This document shows, in pieces, positions 7,015 through 36,803 of a stretch of 57,201 nt of DNA. Made by a program: the position numbers and the translations under genes. Source of the DNA: Cerioporus squamosus (lineage: Eukaryota > Basidiomycota > Agaricomycetes > Polyporales > Polyporaceae); assembly GCA_022592435.1 (NCBI GenBank), contig JABYQS010000207.1:1-57201 (forward strand), read 5' to 3'. Position 1 is the first letter of the stretch; each line of letters starts with the position of its first letter. The notes beneath the pieces were generated by a model. That model ran no database searches. It was not told the DNA's origin and saw only the letters and a program-made list of their open reading frames with translations.

Positions 7015-7045
7015 CACATAATTCAGTAAACATTGTCCACCCTAG

Positions 7046-7093
7046 TAGCCCAGTAGGAGTTACTAACTCCCACAATAGTGGCCCAGCAGGACC
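7046..7093 (+). repeat. Left terminal inverted repeat of the 27.5-kb element
   Basis: This segment aligns without gaps to the reverse complement of 34443-34490 at 39 of 48 positions; the inner 8 bp (GCAGGACC) are identical. A shared CAGTA box lies further out (7024 on the left, 34511 reading inwards on the right). Confidence 0.82.
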
Positions 7094-7126
7094 CAGCCAG
7101 ATCCTGGCTGCAGACAGTTGGATGCG

Positions 7127-7310
7127 CCAGCTGGATGCAGTAGAGCTGGCCCATGTGGATGGCCAGCATGGTCCGTCAGGATGCAGGTAAGCAGTAGGGT
7201 CTGCGGGGAGGGGTGGGTGCACCATGTTGGGCTGTGTGCAGCTAGATGGGCCAGCTGGATACAAAAGGGCTGGTCCAAGTAGATGCAGTATGCAGATAAG
7301 CGGTAAGGCA
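7127..7310. repeat. Subterminal imperfect repeats, left end
   Basis: Two diverged copies begin CCAGCTGGAT, at about 7127 and 7251, each followed by a similar stretch containing GCAG(A/G)TAAGC(A/G)GTA. Such subterminal repeats often serve as transposase-binding sites, but that role is inference here. Confidence 0.5.
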
Positions 7311-7343
7311 CTGCAGTGAGGGACAGGGTAGGCTGATGGTGGG

Positions 7344-7599
7344 CTGCATCCTGTGGACGGATCGAGCTGCTTCCGCACTCATTAGGGTCCGTTTGCAGTC
7401 CAAAGCAAGGGATAGGGTCACGAGGAGCACTACATGGCCATCTGCATCCCGTGGACGGATCGAGCTGCTTCCGCACTCATTAGGGTCCGTTTGCAGTCCA
7501 AAGCAAGGGATAGGGTCACGAGGAGCACTACATGGCCATCTGCATCCCGTGGACGGATCGAGCTGCTTCCACACTCATTAGGGTCCGTTTGCAGTCCAC
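7344..7599. repeat. 98-bp tandem repeat, about 2.6 copies
   Basis: Units start at 7344, 7442 and 7540 with CTGCATCC(C/T)GTGGACGG and are almost identical over 98 bp; the third is partial. They lie just inside the left inverted repeat, and a different tandem array lies just inside the right end. Confidence 0.92.
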
Positions 7600-8786
7600 A
7601 TTTACGCAGTGATATATGTAACAATTACAGCTTTCAGTATTATTGATTCAATTGTTCTATATAATTTTGGCAGGCTCCAACTGGCCCTCCTAGCTGGCCA
7701 TGCCCCAGACCAAGTCAATGCTGGCTTCACCCCCTCAGCCAGCCCACATATATGCTAATGTTTCCAATTAAGCCAGTCCACATCCATGGCCGCATCGCCA
7801 CTTCAGCCAGGCCACAACAGTGCTAGCTCACCTCTACTTCCCAACATATGTAGATGGGCAGTGCCTAGGTAAGACACAGCGCTTGAAGATTCACTGTCAT
7901 TCTATAGTCATCTTTGTCCCCTTTGTTGATATGCATCTGGGCCTTCAATAGGCCATTCTCAGTTCCTTTGCCTGGCCACCCTCTCTCTATGTGTGCAGTG
8001 TGTGCCTCTCAGTTACCCTTGCCGGAGCACTGCTCAAATGTCAGAATACTAGACTTATGGCAACACCTGCACAGGATGCATCGTTGTTATACACCGCTTA
8101 TTTTCATCAGTCACTCAAGAGTGCTATAAAGTGTCGTCTCCAGCAAGTTGTTGCAGCACTTTGGCTGAGTTGGTACAGCTGCCCGGATCTTATCGTGCAG
8201 TGCGTGTTCGATTCTCGCATAGTCCCTTTCTTCGTATACCAGTGCTTTTTGTTCCTGTCGACGATTTGGCAGGTCTTATGAGGGCGATACTACAGTCCGG
8301 TTATTCTATGCGATTCCCCTAGTTTAATGGCTTAACAGGTAAAGTACGTAAAGCCCGGGCACAGTCGGGCATCTGGGCCGGGCCGGGCAGACGATCTGGG
8401 CCGGGCCGGGCAGACGGTCTGGGCTGGGCAGAGTGGCAGGGCCGGGCACAACGCGCGGGCGGGACATATTGCCCTGGTTTTGGTGAGTTGTTCTGGTGTA
8501 ATACGAATCGTCATCTGCAGTATATGTTGCTCGGGAGTTCCAGGTATTCTCCACATACCTAGAGCTCCACATGATGATTAACGCATCATATGCACAAATG
8601 ACCTTACCCGCCACAGCTTATTCGTCGCAATAGTGCCCGCGTGCGCCGTCCTTGCACTGTCAGGTCAGCAAATCATGTGATTCTCTCCCATTTTTAAGTA
8701 CCACTCACTAGTCGTGCTGGCGTGGACACCATCCCCGCCTTTGTCCGCACTATCGTCCAACCCTCATCAAATCCGTCGCCCTCAAT
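7600..8786. other. Non-coding left arm of the 27.5-kb element
   Basis: I see no convincing gene. The stretch 7660-7860 is rich in short AGCTGG / CCAGCC words. At 8356-8457 there is a dense run of GGGCCGGGC and CGGGCA words (five CGGGCA in about 90 bp). The open frames across this GC-rich run are composition artefacts. Confidence 0.6.
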
Positions 8787-9633
8787 ATGTCGCAATCGCA
8801 CCTCCCCCCGCATCGCTTGGAGGAAGACGACGATGATGGCGAGCCGATCGTTCTCAACGAGGTTATAAACGAATATCCTCCTCTCACAGAGGAGCAGCGA
8901 CGCGACCTAGGTTTTTCCACATACCCCTACACATGGGGTTCACCCATGGCTGCCTCGGCAGGACCTAGTGCTGCACGCTGGGGAGGCCCTACAGGACTGT
9001 GGGGCGACGAAACAGCAGAACCACTACCTGAGGTGGATGGAACGGTGAGCTTGGTTCGGACCGCAACAACAGCGGGACAAGCCAATGCTCACTCTATCCG
9101 GGAAGTCAGCATTCGTCTGTCGGGCACTGGGTTCGTCGGGCAAATCGGCTGGGATTATGTCCGCGAGGTCGTTGTGAGTCATTTGCTTTATTAACACTTT
9201 CTACATCTCATTTCCGCGCCCAGTTTCCGTTCCTGCCTACGTTCGACGGGGCGAAGGAATGGCCCGATGTGCCCAATCTCACCATATGGACTCACGGCCT
9301 GTCACCCTCTGCACTGGAGCAATTACACAAGTTGCGGCGTATCTTCATTTGGCTCTCCCGCCCGGCTTCTGTGGAGGAGAGCGACCGCAAGGTCCAGTTG
9401 TGGTCGACATTGTGCGAGGCGGCAGTGGCACAAACTGCCGGCATAAGGTTCGATCCAGTCGATGCCCTGTGTCAGTGGCTGCTGACCGCTGAAGCCATGC
9501 TTCCGGTGAGCGCTGATCCTACCACATTCCTGTCCGGAATCGCAACCAACGGCAACCACCTATTTTGATGCAGGATCAAGTTTGGAAGATTTCAGTGGAT
9601 GCGTTTGGCATCAAGGGGTCGTCGGGTATCTGA
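8787..9633 (+). CDS. Unknown protein A (242 aa, three exons)
   Basis: Exons are 8787-9173, 9224-9505 and 9574-9633, with GTGAGT and GTGAGC donors and phase-0 joins. The start ATG has an upstream CAAT context and no competing ATG. The product begins with an acidic segment (LEEDDDDGE, about residues 10-18) and has a Trp/Gly-rich middle. I recognise no domain, signal peptide or membrane segment. It is the first cargo gene inside the left arm, transcribed towards zinc-cluster gene B. Its function is unknown; it is not obviously related to the similarly sized protein H at 27880. Confidence 0.7.
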
Positions 9634-10175
9634 CTTAGATTCGGGCAACCAGGGTCGAGCGGGCACCCGCGGGCAAGCTATGCAGTCAAGGCAACATCGG
9701 AGATGTTAGTAGAAGTGCCCAGTCAATACTTAACTTAGTGCATATGGGCACTGTTTCTCGTTCAGCTTGTCTACCGCAGCAGTGTGACGATAGTGGGCCA
9801 TAGAAGGTGACGGGCAACAGCGCAAAATGCCAAATGGGTCGCCGGGCAAAATAGGTCTCGGGCAGTGGAGGCATGCGCCAACAGGCTGACGGTGCATAGG
9901 CTCCCTGGATAACAGGAACCCTTCCAGGTCCAGCGCTCTCTTTGGAGACGTTCCACAACCCCTGTTTGCCTCTGCCTTTGGCAGACCGCCTTAGGCCTTC
10001 GGCCAAGTGCCGTCTTTGTTGAAGCAGGTCACATGATGAATGTCACAGGTCTACGTCCGTTGTCCTCTATTCTGACAGGTCACCTCGTGTCCGGTTCATC
10101 AGCCCCAAAACGCGGTCCCTGCGAGCCTCATCTTCTCCCCTCCACGCCACGAAACCTCGTTCAGTCAGATTGAAC
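9634..10175. other. Intergenic spacer with CGGGCA words
   Basis: There is no supported gene. The spacer contains scattered CGGGCA words (for example near 9643, 9660, 9822, 9842 and 9860) and presumably the promoter of gene B. Confidence 0.6.
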
Positions 10176-12909
10176 ATGAGTCGTAGCCTGCCCCAGCGAC
10201 CCACCCTGTTTGAGCAAGCACTCAGGGATTCTGCCCGGACAGAGACTGCCGCTGCTGGTACGCAGGTATTACCTCAACAATGCTTACACTGCTTACGAAA
10301 TCCAAAGATGTCTACACTGGGGCGACCGGTTCTGTTGTGATTACAGAGCCTGAACCCCTCACAGCACAGACACTTGCTCATCATGATACCACAGCTGCCA
10401 ACGATGCACCTGACGCCAGCCGAACCTTTGGTCTGCCACCACCCCTGGTCACTGTTACCGTGCCCGCTTTGCCTTTCGCTGAGCAGTTGACTGAGAGTCA
10501 AGCGGCCTCGGGCACTCTGCCCGCACCCGTTGCTCGGGCCATCGCGCCCGGCGCCTCAACCAGCATGTCAGTGCCCGGCCACCCGTCGAACCGCACCCGT
10601 GGTGACCAGACATCCGCCGTATCCGGGCCAACCACTGGCCCAAGTGTACCAGTCACCTCCCACATCCACGCTACGAGCGACGGTACCACGCGCCGTCTGA
10701 GGCCCTCGACTGTCCAGGAGACCACCCGAGATCCTGCTCACGATTCGGGCACTGTTGCCACGACAAGCAAAGGCAAAGACCCTGGCGCGGGTGCTATATC
10801 GTTGCCGAGCAAGCAAGGTGCGGAACCCCGCATCGAAGCCCCGGGCAGTACCGCTGCGACGAAGAAAGCTGGCCGGTCAAGTCGCAAGGCCACTTACCCA
10901 CCCCTCCGGCTCCCCTCCCCTTTCCCAGAGTCGTTCGAATTCGACGAAGATGAGTTGGTGGATCACTGGGTGCAGATGGTATGTCGAAGGTTCCTTTGAT
11001 TACATTGGCATGCCACTGACCATGTCCATAGGCTGTCATGTGCACCGGCTGCCGCAAACTCGGGGTAACCTGCCGGGTCAACTTCCTACATGGCGCAATG
11101 TGCAATCATTGCACAAATGGACAGGCTGCCTGTTCATTGGTGCCATGCGATGTTAAGGGGCACTCATGGAACCATGCCCAGCGCGCTTACATACTATTCG
11201 ACTTCCAGCGCATCGGGGATGTGACAGCGCAACATCCAGTTCAGTCCATTCGTCCCATGTTTGCTGGGGACCCCGACTTCGTACCTCCCGAGTGGTTCAT
11301 GCAAAGATTTCAGGCTCTGAAACCATCACGGTGGGCGAAGGGCTCGAAGTGGCGTGCCACAAAGCCACGTTCAGCTATGGCCAAACGCGCGAGGTTCCTC
11401 GCCCCTACTTCGGACATGGACTACGAGCCGAATTCATCTGACGCTGAACCTGGTAACTCGTCCGATCCCACGAACACCATCCCAGCGGCCCGCAGGCGCG
11501 CGGCTCGCAAGCCTGCTACGACTTCCACCTCCGCAGACAATGCTGCCCGTGAAAGCGAAGATAGTGACCACTCCCCACCACCACGGCGACTGCTAACCCG
11601 AAGGCGTCTCGAGAAGCGGCCTGCTGCTGTTGTATCGGACGAAGATAGCAGTAGCGGCGCTGCACATGACTACTCCCGGGCACACGATGAGTATGGCTCG
11701 CGTGAAGACATAGGTGCGTATATCTCTTCCATCCCAATGCAGCCTACTGACGCGGCAGTCAGATACAGAGATAACGCAGCGAACGGGCTCCACCCGACGG
11801 ACCCATGACACAGGTCACAGCAGCTCTGACAACCCAAACTCGACTGATGGTGAGGCGGGCCTGGGCACCTCGGGCACTAGTGTCCGGCTTCACCGCAAAC
11901 GACCTATCAAGCGGGCGCGGATCGAGAACGATTTCTCCGAAGATGTATTCCATCACACAGGTACCTCTATTGTTGCATATTGTACCAACGTTCTGACTCA
12001 TTGTGTTCTCTCTCGGGTGAAGCAGACGAGAGAGATGTGGGGTTCCAGGACAACCTTGTCCTTGAGATGTCAGATCTCACCGGAGCTCCTGATTATCAGA
12101 TGGAAACGCCCCCTCCGCCAAGCATCTTAGCTGTAGAACAATCCTTAAGCACAGATGAGGTTTACAGTCGCGTCAACTCCAACTTCATGTCGCTGGACAT
12201 GGAGGACCACTCACTCCGGACCTCTCTCACAATCCTCGAGGAGTCGATCGCAGCTGGTAGGAGCGATGTGCAGCGCGAAATCTCGGATCTTCGAGAATCG
12301 GTTCGTCACACACTTGAGGAACACGGCTCTGTCAATGCACGGCTTAACAACGCTCTCGATGAGCTATGCAAACAACGTACAGAAATGCAGCAAATGCAGC
12401 AGCTGCTTAACACCCTGCTGCTGGAGAGGGTGTGTCCTTCCCCGTGGCCATTCGTACCTCCTCCTGCCCCCCTGCATTCCGCCGCATTGTCGCTTCAGTT
12501 AGATATGGGACTGTCCAGGACAGACGATGCCACCACCTCAAGTGCACATTGTGAGCCGGGGGCTCTACACCCGGGCAGGTCGGACTCCGGTACCCATGCG
12601 CCCGGGATCCCTGTCTCCTCGTCTTCGTCCACACGGCTTCCTGCACCGCACACCACTGACAATATGAGAACGCCTAAGGCAGTTACCACGACATTGCCAT
12701 CCTCTACGACTATAGCACAAGCCCGAAGAGGTGAGCCTGCCCCCGATATCCCCATCGCATCACTGCACTCGTCACGCGATGCTGTCCCGGGTATTATCGA
12801 GCACCCGGCAGGTTCTGATTCCCTCGTAATGGTACCGGGACCAGTCGCCAGGACCCTTACGACCTCCAACGTCCTAGGCATACGTGCACTGCGAGAGTTA
12901 TATGGCTAG
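10176..12909 (+). CDS. Zn2Cys6-cluster plus coiled-coil protein B (838 aa)
   Basis: Five exons: 10176-10257, 10308-10978, 11032-11713, 11763-11960 and 12026-12909. Joining them gives one uninterrupted frame. A low-complexity N-terminal region leads to the signature LVDHWVQM at the end of exon 2. Exon 3 opens with six cysteines spaced CX2CX6CX9CX2CX6C (about residues 255-285), the fungal binuclear zinc-cluster pattern. A conserved block of about 100 residues follows (YILFDFQR, PPEWF). After an acidic linker, exon 5 carries a long coiled coil (about residues 590-680). Paralogues are G (29381-31984) and broken E (14289-17470). B lacks the 120-residue N-terminal domain of E and G. DNA binding is suggested by the cluster type but unproven. 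Confidence 0.85.
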
Positions 12910-13002
12910 AGAAACATGCCCGAGTGGAGTACCCGACTGTCCGACTGTTGAACTGTCTGAACTATTGTCTATGATGTATTAATGCCCCCGTACATACACT
13001 AT

Positions 13003-14181
13003 CTATTCAGGGTACCATTGTTCACCAATTTCGCACAGAGTTTCATTATACATCGCCCACATTCCAATCTCCCCCAAGGACGGTGTCGCCTGCAATCTGC
13101 CAGCCACAGCTGCAACTTCAAGCCATGCCCGGCGCTCGCCGCGCAAGTAGGCCAGACGCTCGGCACCGAATTGGTTTACATCTACCGCCACCCGCATAAG
13201 CGAATGGTCATAGCCGTGGGCAAGAGATGACAGACCCATCGACAGATGGGCCTGAGTGATTTGCGAATTGCGGGCAACCGGGATCGCTGCGCCAGCCTCA
13301 CCAGCAGATGATCCTTGCTGGTCAATGGGGTGAGGGGACCGCGAGGGCGCAATGGACGCTCGGTGCATTGGGCGCATGGTGGGAGCAGTGGGACCGGCAG
13401 AAGAGGCCCTCCCGACGGTGCCATCGGGCAACCGGGCTCCGCTCCGGGTAGGCGAGTGGGAGAGCCGGGCAGATGGGTCGGGCAGTCGGGCAGCGCTCCT
13501 ATCGTGCACAGTAGGCAGGATATCGGGTATTCCAATAGGGCTACGCGGGATGGATGCCAGCATGTCCGGCGAGCTCAGCGCATTTGATCCCAATGAAAAA
13601 GTCGTGCTGCCAATAGGACTGGTGGGGATCGGGGTTCCCTCGTCAATGGGACCGCTAAGGACAGCCACTTGCGATCGCATGGCATCGGGTTGGAGATCCA
13701 GGCCAAGCGGACCTCCAATAACAGGAAGGGTGGCCTCTGAGCCCATATTTTCCGGCAAAGGAGATATCTCTGAGGGGTCAATCACATTTTTGAGTGCGGA
13801 TTGACATACAAGTGAACCAAGACATACTCACCGTCAGCTGGCAATGGCGGTGAGACCCGCATAGGAGATCCCATGGTGTGCTCAGCCGTGCCATCGCTCT
13901 CAGTGTCGTCGGCCTCCAGGCTGGTGAATCGCACTCGTTTCTGTCCCAAGCCAGTTTTCAGACTGACTAGCGGACATGTGATGGGCGCCTACCATCATGG
14001 TTTGTCCGAGTATCTTGTGTCCGAGTAGTATGTGAGAGGGAACAAATACCTAGACACACATAGTATGAGCGGGCAGATTGCAGTCACCGGGAGGAAAGAC
14101 CTACTTGCTTGCGGACGTACTCAGATACAAGGTTGAACGACGCACTAGGGTAGAAGTTGATTTCGCGGTCACGTGACACAT
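13003..14181 (-). CDS. SPIG-repeat protein C (about 320 aa, 5' end uncertain)
   Basis: Secure exons on the minus strand are 14049-13993, 13940-13832 and 13769-13003. The first exon is uncertain; a start at 14181 with a GTGCGT donor after 14146 keeps the frame. The middle contains PTSPIG and PRSPIG repeats. The C-terminus holds a conserved block (about 70 residues) with ERLAYLR, ERRAW and QWYP, shared with protein D at 32238-33740; intron positions also match D. It converges on gene B and diverges from gene E with about 107 bp between the start codons, implying a shared promoter. No known domain was recognised. Confidence 0.72.
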
Positions 14182-14288
14182 TGATGGACGACGTGTCTAG
14201 CGGGCTATCTTGAAAGTGTGCTATCTCATTCGCTCTCACTCATCAAAGCTCCCCTGCTTCCCACCCGTATATTGCGGTGACTCTTGTG
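14182..14288. promoter_or_regulatory. Divergent promoter region between C and E
   Basis: Only about 107 bp separate the likely start of C (minus) from the start of E (plus). The equivalent right-hand pair G/D has 253 bp (31985-32237). Recurrence of this layout supports shared, bidirectional control; no specific operator could be named. Confidence 0.5.
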
Positions 14289-17200
14289 ATGGCTCAATCT
14301 ACGCAAACACGTTCCACGGCCCTCCAGTCTCTCTACGATCGATCTGCCCGGGTTCAGTCCGCCTGGATTGCCCGACCGGCCGAAGATCATCCTGCCCGCT
14401 CCGTCTGGGTGGGCAAGTTCTGGTCGGACCTCGCCGCGCTCGTGGGCAGTATCAGGAAGGTTGAAGAACGCGATGTCCGTGTCCCTCCCTTTGTGGTCGC
14501 ATTCCTCGTGGAGCACAATGCCGCCTTCGCTGCCCACCGCCCCTACAGTCTCCCTGCCCTGGATCCTGCCCTTGCCCCCCGGGCGATGGGCAATTTCCAA
14601 GTGGATGACGACTACACGTTTGAGCCTGTTCGTGGAGGCTGGTGGAACGATCCTTGTACGTCACAGTTCTCTCTCCGTACCTCATTGCCTTCATGACCGT
14701 TGCCCCCATACAGAATTTGCCCCGCTGTCACGTCCTGGGCTGCACGCTGAGCGCATTTCTCCTCCTACCGCCATTGCCCCCAGCAAGCCTGCAATCCGTC
14801 GCCCTCCCTTGTCTTCAGTACTGGCCAAGGACACGTCTCCCACGCCGGACTCCACGTCACACCCGGCCCCTACCTTGGTGCCCTCGATAGAGACCTCCGC
14901 AGGCAGAACGACTCGCTCGACCTCAAAAGCAGCCGGGCATGTCGCTGAGGTTAGCTCGTTGTCTCCCAGCGCCGCGGAATCCGAACCCGAGGTGAGCGCG
15001 CCCGCCGTCAGTGTTCCTGCACGCAGAAAGGAAACCGGCACCCCTCGTGAACGGAAGGATTCTGCCGGGCAGGGGCCTGGTGGGGCCGCTCCACGAACCA
15101 GAGCCCGTGCTGCGGGTGCGAAGCGGAGCTCTAGTACGCCGAGACCTACCAGCAAGGCCACGAAGGCCGTGCCAAGCCTGGCTTCGGGTAGTGGCGTCGC
15201 CAAGGGCAGCAGGAAGGCAGCAAAGACAGCAAAGAGCTCCCCCCCGCCAGTGCGAGACCCCGGGCCGTTTCCGCAAAGTTTCGATTTTAGCGGACAAGAT
15301 CTGGTAGATCATTGGGTCCCAATGGTAAGGTCGCTCTGCGCCCTCCAATATTCAGACTGCTTACGTCTCCTGCAGAAGATCCTCTGCACCGAGTGCGACT
15401 GAAAGGGCCTCGTCTGCCGGGTGAATTTCCTCCACGGTGCGCAGTGCAACCACTGCACGAACATCAAGGGTCACTGCTCGTTGGTCGCTCTCCACGGCAA
15501 CGGCACGGTTTGGACGAAAGAGCAGCGCGTCTACATTTTGTATGACTTCCAGCGCCGCGCCGATCCCACCGCACCTCACCCGGGCGTAACCGTCCGTCCA
15601 AAATTCGCGAACAACCGGACATTTACCGTCCCACCATGGTTCAGTGACAAGCTTAATGCCCTCAAACCCTCCCACTGGGCCCCTGGAGGCGTGGCACGGG
15701 TGTCTAAGCCGCGTTCTTTGCAGTCCAAACGGGCGACGTTTGTCGCACCAACCCCGGACAACGAGGATGGTGCTTCCAGAGCGCGTGTACCCTCGCTCCC
15801 AGCACCACGAAAGGCCTCAGGGACACGCCGGGCCGCCAAAGCTAGGGCGGCGTCAGATAGCGAAGACGACAGCGAGGCAGAGGACACAAGCCCACGTTCC
15901 CCGTCTGTCACATCAAGCACGGACGAGAGTACCAGTGAGCACGAGGCGGATGACGACGGCGACGATGGTGGCGACCAGGACCATGAGAGCACCAGGGATG
16001 GCAGTAGCGCCGATCACGACAACTCGGGCAATAGCGACGACATCGAGAACTTCCTCGATGGGGGAGCAGAGGACATCACACCAGGCAGTCCGCCTCTCAC
16101 CTTGCGCAGGAGCTCCAGACGTCGCAATAGGGTCGTCCTTTCCGAGGGCGAGGACGAGTGCCCGGAAGTTGATATGGCCGAGACGTCACAGGCTAGCGCG
16201 GGCACCTTGAAGATCCGAATCCGCAAGCGTGCCCGGGAGCAGTCAGAGCCTGAGGAAGGTCAGGATGACCCGGCTGCTGGGGGTTCTAGCACCCAGACCC
16301 CCGCCAATCGTCAGTCCAAACGTCGGCGTGCTCAGTACAGCCGCGCAATCACTGTACCACCGCCCACGGGTAAGCGCTTTTTTTGGTGCAATCTGGGCGT
16401 CCACGCTGATTATCTAGTGCCCTGGCGTGATATGCCCTCTTTAGAGAAGCAACTCGGCCTGCAAGAACAGCTCTCCGCGCTGGCAGAGAGTTCGAAGGCC
16501 CGCTCGGCAGAGTCTCCTTACGACGATGAGGTAATGGCAGCCCATGGATTTGCTCCCGACTACGATCTCGACTTCGACTTCGAGCGATCAATTCCCCCGG
16601 TCATCCAGGACCTCACCGGCTCGCCCACCAAGGAGGAGGTCCATAGACGCGTCAATACCAACTTCGCATACCTCGAGGGCGAAACCTCTTCTCTCTGGGA
16701 TGCCGTCACCAAGCTCGAGAACTCGCTCAAGAGTGGACAGCAGAATTGGGAGCACGACTTCGGCGAGCTGCGGAAGTGCACAATGCAAGCTATCGCCGAC
16801 AACGACCTTCTCTCCCAGAAGCTGACCCGTGCGATGGAGGAGCAACAGCAGCAGAAGAACGACATCGCGGAGTTGAGGGGTATCGTCAACACTCTCCGGT
16901 GGGAACAGGGACTGGGTGGCCAGTGGGAGGTGGGTACAACCTCCGCTTTCTCTGCGCACTGCAAGCTCATTGCTTAACATATAGCAGAGAGATAATTGGC
17001 CTGATTTCTTGGCAACATACCCGACGGGCGGTTTCCCCGAAGCCCCCCATGCAAGCGGTGAAGCCGTCACTGCCCGACGGTTCGATGCCGCCAAGACTGC
17101 TCGACCCTTCGCCCCCGACAGCCATGACCAGAGCCAGTCCTCACTTGCCCCCTCGGCGCTGGCCGCCTCATCCTTCATCCCGCGTGGCTTGTTTGAGGAG

Positions 17201-17470
17201 CATCGTCCCAGTCCGCCCAGCCACCCGAACAGTCAAGAACAGGGCTCTCTCGCGGACGCACCGGGTGAGCCACAGCTCCCCCCTGGCCCGGGCAGTGTGG
17301 AGCCTAGAGTGTCCCCCCATCCGGAAGATGACGATTTACGCTCGCCCGAGGACCCGGACCCGCAGCACATGCATGCCAAAGGCACGGTCGTGGCGCACTT
17401 GTCCAGTGTGCCCCACGTTGATCAGTCCGATCCCCCCGGCGGTGCTGAGGACGAGTGTGTACTGCTGTAG
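14289..17470 (+). pseudogene. Broken Zn2Cys6-cluster plus coiled-coil gene E
   Basis: The exon structure mirrors gene G: 14289-14655, 14714-15324, 15376-16369, 16418-16929 and 16988-17470. Exon 1 is 367 nt in both genes and encodes the same roughly 120-residue N-terminal domain (SARVQ, VPPF). The coding sense continues through LVDHWVPM, the cysteine cluster, YILYDFQR, an acidic region and a coiled coil. Two lesions break it. The join of exons 1 and 2 creates TAA, because T stands where G has G at the donor edge. A TGA at 15400-15402 falls inside the cysteine cluster, opposite an Arg in G. A truncated product or unusual splicing cannot be excluded, but as read the gene is dead. Confidence 0.75.
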
Positions 17471-18020
17471 CAGCCGCAGGCGTACCGGACAATCAGCAGT
17501 TATCGCTTACCGCCGGAAAAGCTGACAAGTTGTGCTAGGCGGGTAGTGCAGTGGACGATGGGCAGCAGGCGGTCGACCGGACACAGTAATCGTGTACCAT
17601 GTACCCTGGCCCATGATATCTCAGTACAACGGCTCGGTCTTGTATATGTCCATAGCACCTATTGGCTCACCCCTGTGTAGTATATATCAACAGCCATCAG
17701 TACTTGAGTATCTTGAACGGGAGCTTCCAAGGGCACCACGATACATCCCGGCGGTATGACCGGGCAGAGGAGCATCCGGCTGTCGGGCAATATCAGAGGG
17801 ACGGGCAGTGTCAGAGTGCCGGGCAGCGGGCTGGTGCCCGGCAGTGATGCCCGGGACCTTTGGAGTTAGACCCATGGAAAGCGGCACACTTTTGTCTTCA
17901 GTCAGCATCATCAACACCCTCACTTGACCCATCACACAGCTTGTCATTCATGGGGGATTTGTACAGAGGTACATAGTCAGTACATACGATGTCCCAGCAG
18001 CTAGCTGCACAGCTGGTACA
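17471..18020. other. Convergent intergenic region with dense CGGGCA/TGCCCG words
   Basis: This lies between the ends of E (plus) and F (minus). No gene was found. At 17761-17855 there are six CGGGCA or TGCCCG words in under 100 bp. Confidence 0.6.
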
Positions 18021-22913: not shown

Positions 22914-22987
22914 CATCTCACGGCCAAGCCTGTACTCCTCTCTCCCATATCCTCTCCAATCACTACCCTCGGTTGCCGTTTACGACG

Positions 22988-25900: not shown

Positions 25901-27284
25901 ATAACAATTACGAGGTTATGGATATATATGAGGTAGAGGATAAGAAATGTGCGTATACATAAAACCATGCGCCCAGAATATGCTGATTAACTACTTTTTC
26001 AGTGCCAACACGTGCACAGATCCAGCTCGAGCTGGCCAAGCAGGAGAATACCAGAAAAGGCTCTGCTCCCAAGGGCGCCGCTGCCTGGATTGTCGCGGGC
26101 CTCAAGATCGAGGAGTCACGGTGTGTAGTACGCAGCTCCTTCCGTAATATCAACCTCATACTGTTTGCACAAGCCTGGCAGTGGCCGCTAAGGCTCGTCA
26201 CATGCGCCCGGGGAGCTCTACCGAAGAGAAGATAGCGCTTGAGCAGATGCGTGCCAAACTGCTACGTGACATCGAGAAGTTCAACAAGGATGCACGGACG
26301 TTCCTGTCTCAAGCAGCATTACGTGACTTCCTCTCGGTGCCCGCCAACCGAGAGTCGCTTGGAGCCGAATGGGACACCATCAAAGAATCAGCGCCCCGAA
26401 ACGACGCAGGGGGGAGCGACGATGAAGATGAAGCCCCTGTACTGGCCCCTGAGCGCCTCAGCATCCCACTCCCATCAACCCTCGGAGCGGCCCTCTGCTC
26501 GAAGCATGGTTTGTCACAGCTGGTCAAGCAGGAGCGCCGCCTACGGATTGGCCAAATGAATGACGCTCTTCACAATGTTAGGGTTGGCGTTGGATACAAG
26601 TCGCTCCTGTATCGGACTGAGGTTCGACAAGCCGGCTCCCAGCGCCAGAAGCTTCGGAGCTACGATGACGTACATCTTGCGGATGCAGGCATCTTGGCTG
26701 GAGCGCGTTTGTATGATACGGCGCGCACAGCAATGACTCGACTGTACGACCAAGCAATCGAGGCCGACAAAGCAGAGCTGGACGCGGAATTACGCCGATA
26801 CCAGGTCTTGCAGAAACAAGATCTCAAAGCCAACACAGCTTTAATCGAACAGAGCGTCCGCGGAGTATCACACCTGCATCTTCCCTGGTTCTGGACACTG
26901 TCAACGCCTGGAGAGGGAGCATCAGGCTCCTGGGACGAAGAAAGTGCGTTTGGTTATGAACTGATGCTCCATGTGTATCGCGTCGAGCTCTGAGCTAACA
27001 TGCCGTTAGTGTACCGCGTGGTCTACCTGCGGGCATATGCCCGAGTTCAGCGCCTGGAGGAAGAGCTTGCACTCGTGCCGGCCGAGATGCTGCGGACGCT
27101 AGCAAGCTATGAGACGCATCGCGATTGCTGGAAGACACGAGCACGAGATACGTGCCGCGGTGACGGGTATATAGCTTGGGGTACCCGACAGGCTGCCCTG
27201 TGGCAAGCCTTGCACGGTCATGCCGAGGGTATATTTTCTGCTGCCAGAATGGAGGCCAGCCGTAGACTACTCTCGGACGATTGA
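22988..27284 (+). CDS. KDZ-family transposase with CxC2-like cysteine cluster (1267 aa)
   Basis: Ten exons: 22988-23251, 23305-24606, 24669-24850, 24899-25061, 25112-25257, 25309-25700, 25757-25948, 26003-26120, 26174-26943 and 27010-27284. All joins keep one open frame. The CxC2-type cluster spans about residues 121-187 (CGAC, CLDC, CARC, LPFHRIEFW, GHGGDACP). A Pro/Gly-rich acidic linker with three NPGT repeats follows. The KDZ catalytic core has Asp in MDGNF (about 593), Asp in YDIWCHYW (about 712) and Glu in EIIESLW (about 776), then the NDSNWMKL motif and the helical tail that ends KDZ proteins. It should cut and paste the surrounding element. It appears intact, unlike several neighbours. 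Confidence 0.92.
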
Positions 27285-27879
27285 CGATAGTATTCCTGTC
27301 ACAAGACCCACCAAGTCGTGAGGAGGTGCATGAAAACGACGTACCAGAACGAGTCCCCTAAGAATGATTGGACGAGAACGTGGTGGCTGGCCAAGACTTG
27401 CAGGTGTCGCAGTGGTATGTATAGGATAGCCAACAGGCCAAAGAGCGAGGACTGACAGCATTGTCAGCGCGGGGGAGCTCACATTATCAGCACGGCCGGC
27501 TCATTTTGATCAAGGCAGGCGTTCAAAACATATCTGCACTCAATCGCAAGTGATGTACCTACCGCCTCATGTAGCATTTGCGTGTGTGCGTAGTCGGGCA
27601 GAATGAATATCTCAGGTCCGCTCAGTAGTGGAAGAGGGCTGCCCCACAATGAGGGACATCACTGAGGGGAAGATGGTCCTGGTTCTCCAGCGCTGTGGGT
27701 GGCATTCTGAAATGGGCCGTCACTCTGTGGCTCGTTTGCCCGAGAGCATGTGTGCCCGAGAGCGCAGTAACGACGGCCCGATTCACCGATCTGTCGCCTG
27801 ATCACGTGCAGTTCGGTTAATAGTGGCTTGCCCTACGCTCTGCTGTTCGGATGATTCGTTTATCTGCTTGACTGCCGCC
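27285..27879. other. Intergenic spacer
   Basis: It lies between the transposase stop and gene H. No gene or repeat was recognised; it must contain the KDZ terminator and the H promoter. Confidence 0.5.
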
Positions 27880-28679
27880 ATGAAAGCTGCATATGTCGAG
27901 TTACATCTCATCGCCTGGCGCATCGTATCGGCCCTCCGTGCGTATCCGCCCGACGCCGGGCACAGCACTCAACGGTGGCAGATGGGGATCACCAGAGAAC
28001 TGGTGCGGCTCTCTCCTGACTGGTGGTTGCGTACTTACACATTGTTGCAGTGGCGGGCCGTCTATGCTATCGGCATGGTGGCGACAGGCTCAGTGATGGA
28101 CGGGAAACCGGCGTCCTGCAACGACATTCCCGCTGTCGTTCGGCTAGTTTTGGCATGCGCGCAATTCAACGGCACGGCAATGGCACTGGACTTCAAAGCT
28201 TTGGACCGGGAAGGCATCATTGAGGCTTTCGGTGACGGACCCGATTTCAGCGACACGCCGCTGACAGGGGAGCAATGGTGGGATATGCCGGAACCAGGTT
28301 CAGCCGAAGAGCTCGCTCGGCCGACCTGGTGGGAGAGCCCGAGTTCGGCGATGGTGAGTCATATCGGTGATACACTATGTCATGGGGTTTGTGCTAACCA
28401 TGCCAACAGGCCCGACCTGCCCTTGCGATGCTGGAGGACTTCATTAATGTCTGTGCTGCGGGTGCGGAGATATCGACCACTGCGGAAATGAGGGCTGCGG
28501 ACACGATCAGGGAAGTCCGTGAGGAGAAGAAACGGCTACATGCGGCGAAGTCTACCCTGGCCCGCACAAAGCAGTGGCCAGTCGAAGGACTGGGTCGCAA
28601 GTGGCCTTCTGCACCTCCGCCGGTACCCACTGCAACAACGTCGGCAGACACGGCCCAAATGGAGGGTGTCGAGGAGTAG
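27880..28679 (+). CDS. Unknown protein H (about 247 aa)
   Basis: Exon 1 is 27880-28353 and exon 2 is 28410-28679, with a GTGAGT donor. The start ATG has a strong context (GCCGCC before it). A further 48-bp in-frame intron ending at TTGTTGCAG (before 28051) is possible and would remove 16 residues. The N-terminal half is helical and hydrophobic without a clear membrane segment; the middle is Trp/acid-rich (GEQWWDMPEP) and the C-terminus is a charged helix. No domain was recognised. It sits directly downstream of the transposase on the same strand. Confidence 0.68.
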
Positions 28680-29380
28680 AGATACCATTCCGATGTGTTA
28701 TGTATCTCACGTGCAAGATAAGCCTACTGTCAGGAGGTATGGCCCGTCAGAGACCCGGCGGGCAATCGGTGCCCGCTCCCAGATACCCGGTGCGATCTGC
28801 CCGGTGCCGGGAAGCATCCTCGTCGCGTTGTTGTGAGGTAGGCCTGAATGAGCAATGTGCTACTCATAGCAAGTCATTGTATTGAGAATTCTATGTACTC
28901 CAAGAGTTCCAAGTGAGAGAACCGTAGAAACCCTCACAGTGTCCGACAGCGGGTGCCATCTGCCCGGTGCCCGGCGAGTGCTAGGCGGCGACCCGTCCTT
29001 ACTATGGAGACTTATAAGCTGCATTTCTGCCACGCATGTCGCCTTATTGTGTCTCTGACATCTGTCGTCATTCCAGCTATCACTCGTCTGCCGTCAAGAA
29101 GGCTTTCGATATACAATAACTATGGAAGGTATGGATAGGGCTGGAATGTACAGCCTACACGGTGTTACGCGAAGTGATGAAGTCTCCAATGTCGGAGTGG
29201 CGGAACGCATATTGCAAATCGTGAACCTCCTGTGCAAAGACTATGTCTGTCACGAATGGGCCGAAGGGCCGGCACCTCAACTCGACCACGTCCCTCGGAG
29301 AATTTACATTACTGGCATAGCAGCGTTGTGCACCAGATGACCGATTGTGTGGCGCACGACTAGAGTGCCGGTCATGTCAA
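28680..29380. other. Intergenic region between H and the end of G
   Basis: No supported gene was found. A few CGGGCA/TGCCCGG words occur (for example near 28798 and 28962). Short open frames here have no coding character. Confidence 0.5.
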
Positions 29381-31984
29381 TCACGGTGTGCTGGACGAGT
29401 GCCGCTCGCCCGGCGCAGTGCGACCGCCACGAAGGCCGTCAAGCTGAGGAGACCGGGGCGGACTGGAACCGGCACTACGAGGGGGCGAAGAGCGTGCTGG
29501 GATTGCTGGCGGTTGATCCGGTTGATCCACAAGATATAGCTCAACATCGCTGGAGGTAGCGAGTGATGAGACGTGTAACCCGGGCAGATTGTGCACCCGC
29601 ATTTCTGAGCCACTTCCCAGGACATCGTCGGCATGGTACACTGGGGAAGAGGGCATTCCGTCTATCCCACGCGTAGCCTCTGCACCTGATTGCATCGACG
29701 TCAGGTCCAAGTAACCCAAGATCGGAGTGAGGGGGGCAATGTAAGCCAATGGCGGGCGCACCTCCAACATCGTTGTGCTGCCCTTCTCGAGTAAGATCGT
29801 ATTGATGACGTGCTGGAGGCGCGTAACTTCTGCCTTCTGCGTGTGGAGCTCTTGCATCGCGTCGTTCAGGCGCAACGATATGAAAGACTGGTCCTCGATG
29901 GTTTTACTTGCGGCTGTCCAGAGATTTGACAGCTGTTGCTGGACGTCCTGCCGCCCCAACGCAATAGACTCCTGGAGGCTCGTGATAGAGATCGATAGTG
30001 AGTGTTGGTGCGTGGAGAGGTTCATGAAGTTTGAGTTGAGCCGCCGGTGATTCTCCACCGCCCCTAGGTCATCCTTGACAACGTGGACGTGCAACATGTC
30101 GGTGACTGTGAGGTCCATCTGCTGGTCAGGAGAAACGCTCTGGTACGACGTAGAACCTGAAGCCTCGCTTGTTACTTGCGCGCTTGCAAGGCGTTCCTGA
30201 ATGCCCGGTGGCGTCGCTACTAACGGCATGTCACATTCAATGAGCGTTCTAAGCCGTTGAATGAGCCGTTGAATGAGCAATGAAAGACTTACGCATGGGA
30301 GTGTGAATGCTTGCGCGACCCCCATACTGCACGCGAGCTCGCTTGCCAGGCCGTTTGCTTGGCTGAACACCCATGCCCGAACTGCCCGAAACGTGCTCCG
30401 CGTTGCTCTCACATGCAGGCCCGCCATCGCTGTTGACTTCGTCGTGGGCCCGCCGCTTCAACGATGCTGAGGATATGGTCCGCTGCTGCAGAGAGTTGGG
30501 ATCGTCTTCAGCGCCGGAAAGGTGCCCACCCTCGGAGTCTGAGGTATCCTCGAAATCAGAGGTGGGAGCCAGGAATCTGGCACATTTTGATGCAGCGGAC
30601 CGGGGCTTCTCCATACGCCATACCGACCCCTTTTCCCAGAGGGACGGCCTCAAGTTGCCAAGCGTTTTGACGAACCAAGATGGTGGTACGAAGTCGGGAC
30701 GGTCAGCAAATGATGGATGTATCGACCTGGCGGGGTGGTCAGCAGTGGGATCGGATCGGCGCTGGAAGTCGTAGAGGATGTATAGCCGCTGTTCCTTGGC
30801 CCATGAGTGCCCGAGCAGCTCCTGGGGGACCAGGGAGCACGCGGCCTGTGCGTTGGTGCAATGGTTGCACATGGCGCCGTGCAGGAAGTTGACGCGACAT
30901 GTCGACCCCAGTCTGGCACACATTGTGCAGACGATGACCTTAGGATGCGGTTATCAGCAAGCGGACGTAGCGAGAAACATAACAGCGCACCATTTTCACC
31001 CAGTGGTCCACAAGGTGCGTGTCGTTGAAATCGAACGTGAAGGGGAAAGGCGAGGGGAGTTTGAGGCGCGGATACCCTGCCTTGCCCGATCTGCTGTCCT
31101 TGACCGTCCGAAGCGACTTGCCTCCATCTCCGCCCCCAAAAACTGGACTCGCGCCTGCCCTAGAAACGATTGCCGAGGAAGAGGAGGTGGGAATCGTGGG
31201 ACTAGTCCCTGTGGCTGTCCACTGGCCACGTTTGCGATTCCGAGTGAGCATGTTGGTAGACGGATGGGGTGCGGATGCGGGTGTACTGGGCGCAGTGGTG
31301 GGCGGGTTTGGGGTGTCCGACGTACTACCGGCAGTGCCCTGCAAAACCGTCCCAGCAGCCCGAGACGCTGCCCGCGTGACGATGCCAGATGGTGCTATTG
31401 ACATGCTCATCGACTGAGAGCTGCCGGCAGGCGCCGCAGGGACAGCATCAGGAGCTGAGTACAGATTCCCGAGTGCAGATGACGCCTTGACAGTTTGGGA
31501 GGCCCTGCCGAGGGAACGCTCCAGTTGGGCAGCAGGTGCAGGAGCGCCCGGGGCAAAATCTGAAAGGGGCCGAGGTGGTGAGCACGACGAACACTACAAG
31601 AAAGGCCTGCCACGCACCTGAATGGGCCCACCAGCCGCCATCCACTGGCCTAAACTTGTAGGCTCTGTCTGCTCTGAAGTTGCAAACCTGATCGGGAGTA
31701 TGGGCAGGATCCAATGCCTCAACGTCGTACGGCCTCTTGGCGTGGAATGCGGCATTGTATTCGACCAGGAACGTGAGGAGAAATGGAGGGATAGACACGT
31801 CGTCAGAAGGCAGCTGCTTCAAAAGTCTAGCGAGGGAGGCGAGGTCAGAACGGAGCATACGCTCCCAGCCTGCGCGGGCAGGGTGATCTTTCGCAGGCCG
31901 GGCAGTCCAGGCAGTCTGCACCCGGGCAGAGCCATCGTACAATTGGGTCAAGATCGTAGAGGCCTGTATGTGAGGGTCACTCAT
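29381..31984 (-). CDS. Zn2Cys6-cluster plus coiled-coil protein G (806 aa)
   Basis: Minus-strand exons are 31984-31618, 31559-30991, 30938-30293 and 30219-29381, giving one open frame. Residues 1-122 form the N-terminal domain shared with E (SARVQTAW, DDVSIPPF, GGWW). A Ser/Pro/Ala linker leads to LVDHWVKM, then six cysteines spaced CX2CX6CX9CX2CX6C (about residues 316-346), the YILYDFQR block, an acidic segment and a coiled coil with RLNSNF at its start. It is the intact counterpart of broken E and is divergent from SPIG gene D, just as E is divergent from C. Nuclear DNA binding is a reasonable guess from the zinc cluster but is not shown. Confidence 0.85.
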
Positions 31985-32237
31985 GCTGAAGTCGTCCTAC
32001 ACCGTGTTTCAAGGAGACCTGAATGGACCAGTATAGCAGATGAACAGGGCAGTGGCCGGGCACCACGGGCAGGACGCGCGTCGAGGGAGAAGTCCGCTAT
32101 GTGACAGATGACGCCGTATCACGTGATCGCCAACGCAGCAATGACTAGCCGAACCGAATTGACCTGGTGTCCGGAACCCTCGCGCAGCCTGCAGCCCATT
32201 GCGTCTCCTGTAGGTCGCAATGCTATATTGTTTCACT
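31985..32237. promoter_or_regulatory. Divergent promoter region between G and D
   Basis: A 253-bp space lies between the start codons of G (minus) and D (plus). It is the counterpart of 14182-14288. No specific element was identified. Confidence 0.5.
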
Positions 32238-33740
32238 ATGGCATCTGACTCTTCAGTTCTGCAGGTCAGTGTATCGATACTGCCCGGATTTGCCCACTTC
32301 CCAAGACTACACAAAATGCCGGTAGGTGCCACTTCCACTGGCACCTATATGCATGCTCATCAGACTCACCTAGAAACATGCCAAATCCAGAAGGTCTACA
32401 ACGGTTGCTGCTGCGACTGAGCGAGAAGATGAGACGCCCCAGCGCCTCGTCCCGCCGAGGCGCAACACCCGAGTGTCCCGGAAGCATCGTGAGTGAGGCC
32501 TCATGCATCTGATCTCACCGCTGACGGTCGTTCCTGTTGGCATGTGTTCCATTTAACAGCAAGGCGCTCTGCTTCCGGCTCGTCAGTAGGGCCAGATGCA
32601 GCTGCCTCCGTGGTCGCCAGTCTGCCAGAGCTCGAAAGTGTCCGGGCGTTGCCAATACCTACCAGCCCCATCGGGAGGGCACTAGACGAGGCCGGATCGA
32701 TTGTCTGTGATGTAGCTGCTCCACCGACCAGCCCGATTGGTCTCCTAGATAGGGCTTCGGGATCTTTCATCGGCGCCCCTACCAGCCCCATAGGCCTGTC
32801 GCCCCCCGCGCTGGAGTCGACTGGTTCCATTCATGCAACACCAAGCAGCCCAATGGGAGCCAACATATTACCATCGCGCAGCATACCAACCACAAGGTCT
32901 GCAACGCCGATCAACTCGGGCGATCATGGTGGTCGCCCAGTCAGCCCGCCGGGCAGGGCAGACGATCCGGGCAGGGCACACTCAGAACCTGCAGACCCTT
33001 CCATAATCCAGCTTGGGCCTACTGTTGGCTGGTTCATCAAGGGAAGGACAGAACTGGGCTCAAAATTCGCTCTGGTTCCAGTGGATTGGCCGGACATTGA
33101 TCGCTCGTCAGAGTCGCCTACCCCGGCAACAGGATCCGGTATCCAGACCCCTGACCGGCCTACATCTGCAGAGGGTTTCTCGCAATCGACCAGCGTGGGT
33201 TCCGAAGCCTGGGGGATGGATCCCGCCGGTCCTTCCAACCTCCGCTCTGCCGTCTCGCCGATGACCGCTTCGGAGACGGCTTGGACAACTGAAGCCGGTC
33301 CTTCGCACCACCACCCTCTTCTCCAGCCGATGACCGCTCCGGAGCAGTTCTGCAGCACTGAAGGCAGCCCTTTCGCTGCCCAACCGGTGTCCACCCGGCA
33401 GCAGCTCTGCCCCGTGAACGCGGTATCTTCCCCGTCACAACCCCTCGTGATCAGGGGTGTGAGTGGTGGCGCACGACTGCCCTCTCGAACGCGCAATGAC
33501 GCAGGCCCTGCCCATACTGTGTATGATGACTCTCTGGCACGCATGGTGCAGGATGCCGTCTATTTCAGTGGTGAACGCCTGGCGTACCTGCGCCATGAAC
33601 GTCGCGCTTGGAAGGACGTGACTGAGGCTGCGTACAGGGCGCAGCTGAACAACCTGTTGGTGGGGATCGGCGATTGGAGCATATATAACGATGTTCTATG
33701 TCAAATGGGGGACCAGTGGTATCCAAACCCGATAGATTAG
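32238..33740 (+). CDS. SPIG-repeat protein D (459 aa)
   Basis: Exons are 32238-32321, 32374-32488 and 32560-33740; an in-frame ATG at 32220 is an alternative start. Exon 3 contains three PTSPIG repeats and a related SSPMG, each encoded by different synonymous codons. The C-terminal block of about 70 residues (SGERLAYLRHERRAW, QMGDQWYP) matches protein C. Intron positions and lengths (52 and 71 bp, against 52 and 62 bp in C) support common descent. The middle is Ser/Pro-rich and probably disordered. Ser-Pro sites could be kinase targets; function unknown. Confidence 0.78.
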
Positions 33741-33751
33741 TATGTATTGAA

Positions 33752-34070
33752 GAGTCTGCCCGCGGCAAGGGCGAGAAACGGGCCTACCAGCATACGCGAC
33801 CTTGCGCACGGTGGCGAGCCAGCCGGCGTCCGGAAGCTGTCAACGACGTGAGCCAGCCGGAGTCTGCCCGCGGCAAGGGCGAGAAACGGGCTGACCTCTG
33901 TACGGGACTCTGTGGACGATGCTGGGCGAACCGGAGTGTGGAAGCCGTCAGTGACGCGAGGGAGTCAGACTGTGCCCAGGGCAAGGGCGAGAGACGGGCC
34001 TACCTGCGCCCGCCGGCCTGCGATCCACAGGCTGACCCGCGGGCAGTACACTGCGCACGAGCGCGACCAT
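33752..34070. repeat. Tandem repeat of about 102-108 bp, three diverged copies
   Basis: Copies begin at about 33752, 33860 and 33962 with GAGTC(T/A)G(C/A)C(C/T)G, each containing GGCAAGGGCGAGA(A/G)ACGGGC. The array lies inside the right end of the 27.5-kb element, opposite the 98-bp array at the left end; the two arrays are not similar in sequence. Confidence 0.85.
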
Positions 34071-34442
34071 GACTCTGTCTGGAGCACAACTTGAGCTAAC
34101 ATGTCAGTTGGCTGCTGCCTAACCTGCTGATGCCTGATATGCATGGTAAATGAAGCTACAGTAAGATACTGGATGTTGAAGCTGAGTCTATTAGACCATC
34201 AGTGCCTGCCTTTGAATCATGGCTGCTCTCAGCCTTGAGTCAGTGTGACTAATACCAATAATGTTGAATTGTTGTGGAGTAGAATCTGTGTACCATATAT
34301 TGAGGATGCGTGCTCAGAATCTGGTGGGACGCCAGCCGGGTCATTGCCCTGGACAGTGTCACTTCCCAGCCGGAACACACACATGAACCGCTGCAGCAGG
34401 CCAGCCGGACCGTGGCCATGCACAGTTACCGCCGTCCAGCCA
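34071..34442. other. Non-coding right arm of the 27.5-kb element
   Basis: It is AT-richer than the gene-bearing part and contains CCAGCCGG words near 34333, 34369 and 34401, echoing the CCAGCTGG words of the left arm. No gene was seen. Confidence 0.5.
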
Positions 34443-34490
34443 GGTCCTGCTGGCCCATTATTGTGGGGTTTTGTAAATCCTTTTGGGCCA
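34443..34490 (-). repeat. Right terminal inverted repeat of the 27.5-kb element
   Basis: Its reverse complement matches 7046-7093 at 39 of 48 positions. Outside it, the reverse complement reads CAGTAGAC (ending at 34511), matching CAGTAAAC at 7024. Confidence 0.82.
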
Positions 34491-34519
34491 TGTTTGTGGG
34501 AGGGTCTACTGCATGGGCT

Positions 34520-34527
34520 CCCACGTT
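34520..34527. repeat. Right target-site duplication of the 27.5-kb element
   Basis: CCACGTT at 34521-34527 repeats 7008-7014. The integrase coding sense of element 1 resumes immediately after it with Asp-Ser-Met. Confidence 0.8.
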
Positions 34528-36691: not shown

Positions 36692-36724
<33 letters not shown>

Positions 36725-36803
36725 CTCCCGACTCCACTGGTGTACGCCTGGACAACTCTCGCACCTTCGGACCGACGCACGCGCCCTGTGTGTAGGTTCA
36801 TCA
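35774..36803 (+). repeat. 3' LTR of element 1
   Basis: This 1030-bp copy differs from the 5' LTR by about six substitutions, one extra base and a CT microsatellite longer by 4 bp. It is followed by TCGT (36804-36807), the target duplication, and then pol of element 2. Confidence 0.93.

What the first reader, a model, noticed from the sequence alone, without database searches (positions are those of the whole stretch)
7015..34516. A 27.5-kb KDZ transposon with a TET/JBP gene and a cargo module, captured as a clean insertion
The element is delimited by its insertion into a recognisable integrase gene, by CCACGTT on both sides, by paired CAGTA boxes, and by a 48-bp inverted repeat (39 matches). 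Excision with one duplication restores the host reading frame, so the boundaries are unusually secure. Most KDZ insertions are hard to delimit. The set of ten genes, including zinc-cluster and SPIG-repeat families I do not know from published KDZ elements, makes this a candidate for a large self-mobile element with an epigenetic enzyme.
Basis: partly seen in the sequence, partly recalled or inferred. Interest (0 to 1): 0.92.

Follow-up and report, generated by a model that had tools for sequence, protein, structure and literature searches.

The report
Giant fungal transposon carrying demethylase gene
In the mushroom Cerioporus squamosus a 27.5-kb stretch with exact transposon boundaries, encoding a predicted KDZ transposase and a TET-type enzyme that would oxidise methylated DNA and likely help it escape silencing, sits inside a retrotransposon, and matching end sequences lie at five or more other places in the genome.

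Summary
The element is 7015-34520 (27,506 bp) with a perfect 7-bp target-site duplication, CCACGTT. Three other copies of the host Ty3 retrotransposon run straight through the insertion point. The retrotransposon's two LTRs differ at only 6 of 1,025 aligned bases, so the insertion is probably recent. Two related TET+ KDZ elements (20.4 and 20.9 kb) in the same genome have matching ends, CACATA... and ...ATGGGCTC, each with its own 7-bp duplication; one such end was read at each of four more contigs (at least three further sites). The three elements that I could read through share one order: zinc-cluster gene (+), gene C (-), TET (+), transposase (+). The 'cargo' is therefore a conserved part of the element. 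The TET protein matches the solved Coprinopsis enzyme CcTET and keeps its catalytic residues. TET+ KDZ elements are known (Kojima 2025: TET+ Kyakuja, 7-bp duplications), so this is a new variant of a known kind. Not met in what I could read: the size, the conserved unlike ends, gene C and the zinc-cluster genes. That these genes act in anti-silencing is inference. The element has about seven genes, not ten.

The parts
76..1100 (+). 5' LTR of the host Ty3-type retrotransposon
   Evidence: aligned to 35774-36803: 1019 of 1030 columns identical, 5 gap columns
35774..36803 (+). 3' LTR of the host retrotransposon
3898..7014 (+). left part of the interrupted retrotransposon polyprotein (RNase H, Integrase_H2C2)
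34528..35556 (+). right part of the same frame (rve integrase core, 20.3 bits, below cut-off 32.6)
   Evidence: in frame with 3898-7014
7008..7014 (+). 7-bp target-site duplication CCACGTT, left copy
   Evidence: paralogous empty sites hold one copy of the corresponding sequence
34521..34527 (+). 7-bp target-site duplication CCACGTT, right copy
7015..34520 (+). TET+ KDZ DNA transposon, 27,506 bp
7015..7029 (+). 5' terminus CACATAATTCAGTAA
   Evidence: same type of end, next to a 7-bp TSD, at C70:52088 and (as CACATAGTGACAC) at C690; the latter form also at C922, C233, C531
34506..34520 (-). 3' terminus (reverse complement GAGCCCATGCAGTAG)
   Evidence: the 2 exact matches of GAGCCCATNCAGTAG in the 54-Mb assembly are this one and C70:72458-72472, both abutting the TSD
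7048..7093 (+). subterminal inverted repeat, left arm (46 bp, 83%)
34443..34488 (-). subterminal inverted repeat, right arm
7344..7598 (.). 98-bp tandem repeat, 2.6 copies, subterminal
8946..12909 (+). zinc-cluster gene 1 (public protein P0005, 933 aa, which joins 8946-9505 to 10394 onward; my models kept these apart); motif CTGCRKLGVTCRVNFLHGAMCNHCTNGQAAC
14289..17470 (+). zinc-cluster gene 2 (model 987 aa; its first cysteines fall in a modelled intron and were not recovered)
18021..21131 (-). gene C (model 960 aa; public protein P0001, 688 aa); no Pfam family above cut-off, weak HMG-box match
   Evidence: conserved at C70 and C690
21611..22913 (+). TET/JBP dioxygenase (model 383 aa)
   Evidence: Pfam Tet_JBP E 8.9e-14; CcTET E about 3e-27 with catalytic residues kept
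23230..28488 (+). KDZ transposase with CxC2 cysteine cluster (several exons; matched frames reach to about 28.5 kb)
   Evidence: PF18803 E 5.2e-28, PF18758 E 7.5e-35; frames matched at C70 and C690
29381..31984 (-). zinc-cluster gene 3 (model 806 aa, 100% identical to public protein P0003 of 805 aa)
32493..33740 (+). gene G, with TSPIG repeats; C-terminal match at C70:53767-53474

Best explanation
The stretch 7015-34520 is a TET-bearing KDZ-superfamily DNA transposon whose predicted transposase likely cut and pasted it into a Ty3 retrotransposon through a 7-bp staggered target cut, and whose TET enzyme likely oxidises 5-methylcytosine on the element to counter silencing. Shown: the boundaries, the 7-bp duplication, three paralogous empty sites, related elements with matching ends and other 7-bp duplications, and the shared gene order zinc-cluster - gene C - TET - transposase in three elements. 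Inferred: cut-and-paste by this transposase at unlike ends (CACATA / GAGCCC), TET activity, and zinc-cluster and gene C proteins as DNA-binding partners that bring TET or transposase to the element. Inferred too: the insertion is young, because the host LTRs are 99.4% identical outside gaps.
For: TSD CCACGTT with CAGTA boxes 9 bp inside both ends. Empty sites in 3 of 3 other retrotransposon copies found. C70:52088-72472 with TSD CCACTTC and C690:140219-161112 with TSD TCACGGT have matching ends. One matching end each in new flanks at C922, C233, C531 and C207; the C531 and C207 flanks are the same 7-mer CAGCACT at opposite ends, as expected for the two halves of one insertion. Exact right-end pattern: 2 hits of 2 at element ends. 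Conserved block. TET keeps the HRD, Gly331, Asp337, second H and R positions of CcTET (alignment; residue numbers and roles of H326, D328, G331 and D337 from PMC12730594). Transposase keeps acidic positions in VVD, YDI, NEIIE (motif assignment is my reading). LTR identity. Plus-strand genes keep modelled introns, against passage of the insert through a retrotransposon RNA.
Against: The window's own copy was found once in this assembly, so its own second transposition is not seen. The 3' end is ...TC, not the ...TG reported for Laccaria Kyakuja families. The match of the C690 zinc protein to those of the window is weak (E 1.6e-4), and that of its second zinc-motif gene is not significant (E 0.085). 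One-mismatch hits of both end patterns are at or near control level. The C70 transposase has N where window and C690 have D in the YD motif, so that relative may be inactive. No expression, methylation or transposition data. Structure models of gene C and zinc protein were useless (pLDDT 33.5 and 35.8).
Confidence: 0.85

Rival explanations
1. The four-gene set is a chance grouping: a KDZ transposon with TET plus unrelated passenger genes picked up locally.
For: The window carries extra zinc-cluster copies, and gene G lies on the 3' side in the window but on the 5' side in C70.
Against: Same order and orientation of zinc-cluster, gene C, TET and transposase in 3 of 3 elements read, with divergent proteins. 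Whole-genome searches with zinc-cluster protein 2 and an exon of gene C found only C121 and C70; a C690 gene C query found C690, C207, C922 and C70. These searches miss distant relatives (32 and 33 missed C690).
Confidence: 0.07
2. The element is a dead relic: it inserted long ago and only looks intact.
For: Found once in this assembly.
Against: Perfect TSD, open gene models, transposase acidic positions kept, and host LTRs that differ at 6 of 1,025 aligned bases, which bounds the age of the insertion unless LTRs were homogenised by conversion.
Confidence: 0.2
3. The TET gene acts for the host or as a general modifier and not specifically for the element.
For: Kojima (PMC12730594) notes that oxidised cytosine in Coprinopsis and Laccaria also lies on retrotransposons, hence perhaps non-specific action.
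Against: TET lies next to the transposase in the three elements read here; Kojima argues that multiple TET+ families per genome speak for a role in the transposon.
Confidence: 0.25
4. Assembly artefact: two loci joined through a repeat.
For: Draft assembly of 988 contigs; the window is a whole contig.
Against: Junctions carry a 7-bp duplication and the ends recur at other sites; the public proteins P0001, P0003 and P0005 lie on a contig of the same length, though that is probably the same assembly.
Confidence: 0.03

Closest known systems
TET+ Kyakuja elements of Agaricomycetes (Kojima 2025, PMC12730594; parts 1-5 of 7 of the text and passages read, no supplement)
   Same: KDZ transposase, AG-type TET gene, 7-bp target-site duplication, 5' end CA; that paper reports TET+ Kyakuja in Polyporales among five orders
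   Different: 3' end TC instead of TG; inverted repeats present (46 bp subterminal here, about 1.18 kb in C690) where the Laccaria families were said to have none; carries zinc-cluster genes and gene C. Whether the supplementary table lists such genes or lengths was not seen.
Cryptococcus KDZ1-KDZ3 (PMC12810828, passages seen)
   Same: KDZ transposase with a cysteine cluster; new insertions observed in that study
   Different: about 9-11 kb, TIRs of 139-241 bp, 8-bp (KDZ1) or 4-8 bp (KDZ2, KDZ3) TSDs, CxC1; no TET gene mentioned in the passages seen
CcTET of Coprinopsis cinerea (7vpn, 7w5p, 8jkk)
   Same: matches query residues 9-371, E about 3e-27; catalytic and 5mC/6mA positions kept
   Different: encoded here inside a delimited 27.5-kb element with accessory genes
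Plant Vandal (MuDR) anti-silencing proteins (named in PMC12730594)
   Same: works like: transposon-coded factors that would lift silencing of their own element
   Different: no sequence relation shown or tested; here the effector would be TET

Membership tests
KDZ transposon superfamily | KDZ transposase domain (PF18758) with a CxC cysteine cluster | tested here: met
   PF18758 E 7.5e-35, 121 bits over cut-off 26.6; PF18803 CxC2 E 5.2e-28
KDZ transposon superfamily | insertion with target-site duplication | tested here: met
   7 bp at window, C70 and C690; C531/C207 flanks agree
Kyakuja lineage | transposase falls in the Kyakuja clade | not tested
Kyakuja lineage | 7-bp TSD (8 bp in Zisupton and in the Dileera family Zisupton-1_PGr, per PMC12730594) | tested here: met
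Kyakuja lineage | termini 5'-CA..TG-3' and no TIRs, as stated for two Laccaria families | tested here: not met
   5' CA met; 3' end is TC; inverted repeats present. Not filed as a formal Kyakuja member for this reason
AG-type TET/JBP | HxD, downstream H, position 337 D, position 331 G or S of CcTET | tested here: met
   window reads HRDTAGQPSWYD and IHHGV in the CcTET alignment; C70 has V at 331
AG-type TET/JBP | oxidises 5mC | not testable with these tools
   needs purified enzyme
HMG-box protein (gene C) | HMG box above Pfam cut-off | tested here: not met
   best 14.5 bits, cut-offs 25.4 and 22.4
Zn(II)2Cys6 cluster (zinc genes) | C-x2-C-x6-C-x(5-12)-C-x2-C-x(6-8)-C spacing | tested here: met
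   pattern recalled, no shuffled control; found in zc1, zc3, C70 (1) and C690 (3); six Cys invariant in 5 of 5 proteins aligned; zc2 not recovered by the scan and not in that alignment
Zn(II)2Cys6 cluster (zinc genes) | match to a Pfam zinc-cluster family | tested here: not met
   none listed

The most novel reading that the evidence does not exclude
A family of 20-28 kb TET+ KDZ transposons carries its own anti-silencing kit: zinc-cluster proteins and gene C bind the element's subterminal repeats and bring TET there, so that the element erases methylation from itself while the transposase reads two conserved, unlike end sequences.
Probability: 0.3. Interest if true: 0.8.

Novelty: new variant of a known kind. 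Interest (0 to 1): 0.58.

Why it matters
TET genes are known inside KDZ transposons, but their function for the transposon is, by Kojima's own account, not experimentally validated. Here is a delimited element in a mushroom with a four-gene core shared by three elements, exact ends, paralogous empty sites and, for the C690 type, further copies in the same genome. That makes two open questions directly testable: does a transposon-borne TET demethylate its own element, and what steers it there? It also shows a 27-kb KDZ element inserted as one unit, and end sequences that are unlike each other and better conserved than the inverted repeats behind them.

Tried and rejected
An 8-bp duplication: rejected, the eighth base differs and the CAGTA offsets are equal (9 bp) only with 7 bp. 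Finding further ends by the left pattern CACATANNTCAGTAR: 9 exact hits, of which only the window and C70 are known element ends; with one mismatch allowed 93 hits against 77 in the reversed control. Right pattern with one mismatch allowed: 11 hits against 27 in the control. Protein searches for the zinc-cluster family and gene C returned only Cerioporus squamosus and Polyporus arcularius; searches scored only the 7,992 and 7,989 candidates sharing most words, so wider spread is not excluded. Structure models of gene C and zinc protein: confidence too low, no fold search made. My first gene predictor chained genes together and was replaced. In one search the base-by-base alignment of C78 was run on the wrong strand and is void; its continuity rests on the blastn pieces of that call. 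Five other TET places of the genome (C27, C412, C368, C246, C86) were not examined beyond their loci of about 3 kb, among which only C368 matched the window's TET. Of the six other contigs with the C690 repeat, ends were fetched from four (C207, C922, C233, C531), not from C575 and C639. Papers: Iyer 2014 and Chavez 2014 are not held, so whether they describe gene C or zinc-cluster genes is unknown to me. PMC8889193 was only searched for terms; the one passage shown was its reference list. Searches Kyakuja+cargo, Kyakuja+TET+HMG and Cerioporus squamosus+transposable elements gave 2, 0 and 0 papers. Gene C and the zinc-cluster genes have no name to search for.
Full report
What and where. The window is a whole contig (C121, 57,201 bp) of a 54-Mb draft genome in 988 contigs. 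Proteins encoded in it are recorded as Cerioporus squamosus on a contig of that length.

Boundaries. CCACGTT stands at 7008-7014 and 34521-34527, which leaves an element of 27,506 bp, 7015-34520. The left end reads CACATAATTCAGTAA, the right end in reverse complement GAGCCCATGCAGTAG; CAGTA lies 9 bp inside both. Of 2,580 CAGTA/TACTG combinations in the window, only this pair, among those more than 5 kb apart in this order, has matching 7-mers at that offset. A 46-bp inverted repeat at 83% lies 32-33 bp inside the ends.

The target. The element interrupts a Ty3-type retrotransposon between the zinc-binding and the core part of its integrase. A search with the left flank found three other copies at 84-88%. 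All three run through the insertion point without a break. For C78 this is shown by abutting blastn pieces; for C318 and C512 also base by base, with one copy of the corresponding target. The retrotransposon's LTRs (76-1100, 35774-36803) agree in 1019 of 1030 columns, with 5 gap columns. Since the DNA transposon lies inside the retrotransposon, and its plus-strand genes keep modelled introns, it most likely jumped in after the retrotransposon, hence recently. Conversion between LTRs could make this look younger than it is.

Other copies. End DNA of the window was found nowhere else in the assembly. But two related elements could be delimited. C70:52088-72472 (20,385 bp) has TSD CCACTTC. C690:140219-161112 (20,894 bp) has TSD TCACGGT and inverted repeats of about 1.18 kb that are identical in the ungapped pieces aligned, with one 1-base length difference. 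Both share terminal bases with the window: CACATA at the end upstream of TET, GAGCCCAT in reverse complement at the other. The window and C70 also share the CAGTA box; C690 has GACAC there. The C690 type has further copies. A C690 gene C query scored almost the same on C207 and C922 as on C690 itself (98, 82-83 and 99% in three segments, against 98, 83 and 99%). A 419-bp piece of its repeat was found at 84-100% on C233, C922, C207, C575, C531 and C639. I fetched the predicted ends of four of these six contigs; 4 of 4 carry the terminal bases, in different flanks. Each shows one end only. The 7-mers next to the C531 and C207 ends are the same (CAGCACT) and stand at opposite ends, so these two contigs are probably the halves of one insertion. 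That gives at least six insertion sites in all, the window included. The only exact matches of the right-end pattern GAGCCCATNCAGTAG in the genome are the window and C70.

Genes. Models and public proteins give, left to right: zinc-cluster gene 1 (+), zinc-cluster gene 2 (+), gene C (-), TET (+), transposase (+), zinc-cluster gene 3 (-), gene G (+). The public model of gene 1 (P0005) joins two parts about 0.9 kb apart that my models kept separate, so the count may be eight. Pfam recognises only Tet_JBP, CxC2/CxC1 and KDZ above cut-off in the 30 frames and 5 proteins that I scanned for the element. In C70 and in C690 the order zinc-cluster (+), gene C (-), TET (+), transposase (+) is the same. 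C690 has a further gene with two zinc motifs in reverse orientation on the 3' side, where the window has zinc-cluster gene 3, but its sequence match to it is not significant (E 0.085). C70 has gene G on the 5' side. The C690 zinc protein upstream of gene C is a distant match (E 1.6e-4), but all six cysteines are invariant in 5 of 5 proteins aligned. Zinc gene 2 of the window was not part of that alignment, and its first cysteines fall into a modelled intron. Whole-genome searches with zinc protein 2 and with the main exon of gene C found only C121 and C70. Both missed C690, so sensitivity is limited. Polyporus arcularius has gene C (56%) and a zinc-cluster protein (42% over 54% of the query) on contigs of 15,202 bp, most likely the same one.

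TET. The 383-aa model matches CcTET from residue 9 to 371. HRD, the positions given as Gly331 and Asp337 in PMC12730594, the second histidine and the arginine are kept. This is the AG type of Kojima, predicted to act on 5mC and perhaps 6mA. In C70 position 331 is V.

Transposase. Window and C690 keep VD / YD / E in the aligned blocks; C70 keeps the first and the last but reads YN in the middle, so C70 may be inactive. Stops seen in the C70 reading fall in stretches that may be introns. That these are the catalytic residues is my reading of the pattern and was not tested.

How it likely works. Shown: ends, duplications, empty sites, recurrence, gene order. Inferred: the transposase excises and inserts the element with a 7-bp staggered cut; TET oxidises methylcytosine on the element; zinc-cluster and gene C proteins are DNA-binding partners. 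The inverted repeats behind the ends vary from 46 bp imperfect to 1.18 kb, while the outermost bases stay, and differ between the two ends. This suggests that the transposase reads two different termini.

What is known. Kojima 2025 (PMC12730594, parts 1-5 of 7 read plus a term search; no supplement) describes TET+ transposons in 11 lineages and TET+ Kyakuja in five orders of Agaricomycotina including Polyporales, with 7-bp duplications, CA..TG ends and no TIRs in the Laccaria families. The present element fits by TSD and TET type, not by the 3' end and the inverted repeats. Clade membership was not tested. KDZ1-3 of Cryptococcus (PMC12810828, passages) are about 9-11 kb and mobile. Of 68 papers holding Kyakuja, Dileera or Zisupton, 20 were listed to me; searches added no paper that I recognised as describing such accessory genes, but I opened only three papers and Iyer 2014 could not be read.

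Verdict. A well-delimited, probably young, large TET+ KDZ element with a four-gene core shared by three elements of one genome: a new variant of a known kind.

Noticed in passing
C690:140219-161112 (L061, L044, L045, L062): A second TET+ KDZ element with about 1.18-kb inverted repeats; a 419-bp piece of the repeat recurs at 84-100% on C233, C922, C207, C575, C531, C639, which suggests amplification in this genome.
   Followed up: partly
C531 (L077) and C207 (L074): Judged from coordinates, both contigs show the interior (transposase; gene C) in the opposite orientation to the ends as compared with C690, as if the inside had been inverted by recombination between the long inverted repeats. Assembly error is not excluded.
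   Followed up: no
C70:73281-74648 (L043): A second, more distant KDZ transposase lies close behind the C70 element.
   Followed up: no
window 36804-41246, - strand: Another Ty3 retrotransposon with chromodomain, next to the 3' LTR of the first one.
   Followed up: no
window 54413-55456, + strand: GMC oxidoreductase C-terminal domain, probably an ordinary gene.
   Followed up: no
G000, whole-genome family searches: 92 KDZ domain matches (exon pieces counted apart) but only 8 TET matches, 3 of them over the cut-off.
   Followed up: partly
window 7344-7598: 98-bp tandem repeat near the 5' end of the element, a possible protein-binding array.
   Followed up: no
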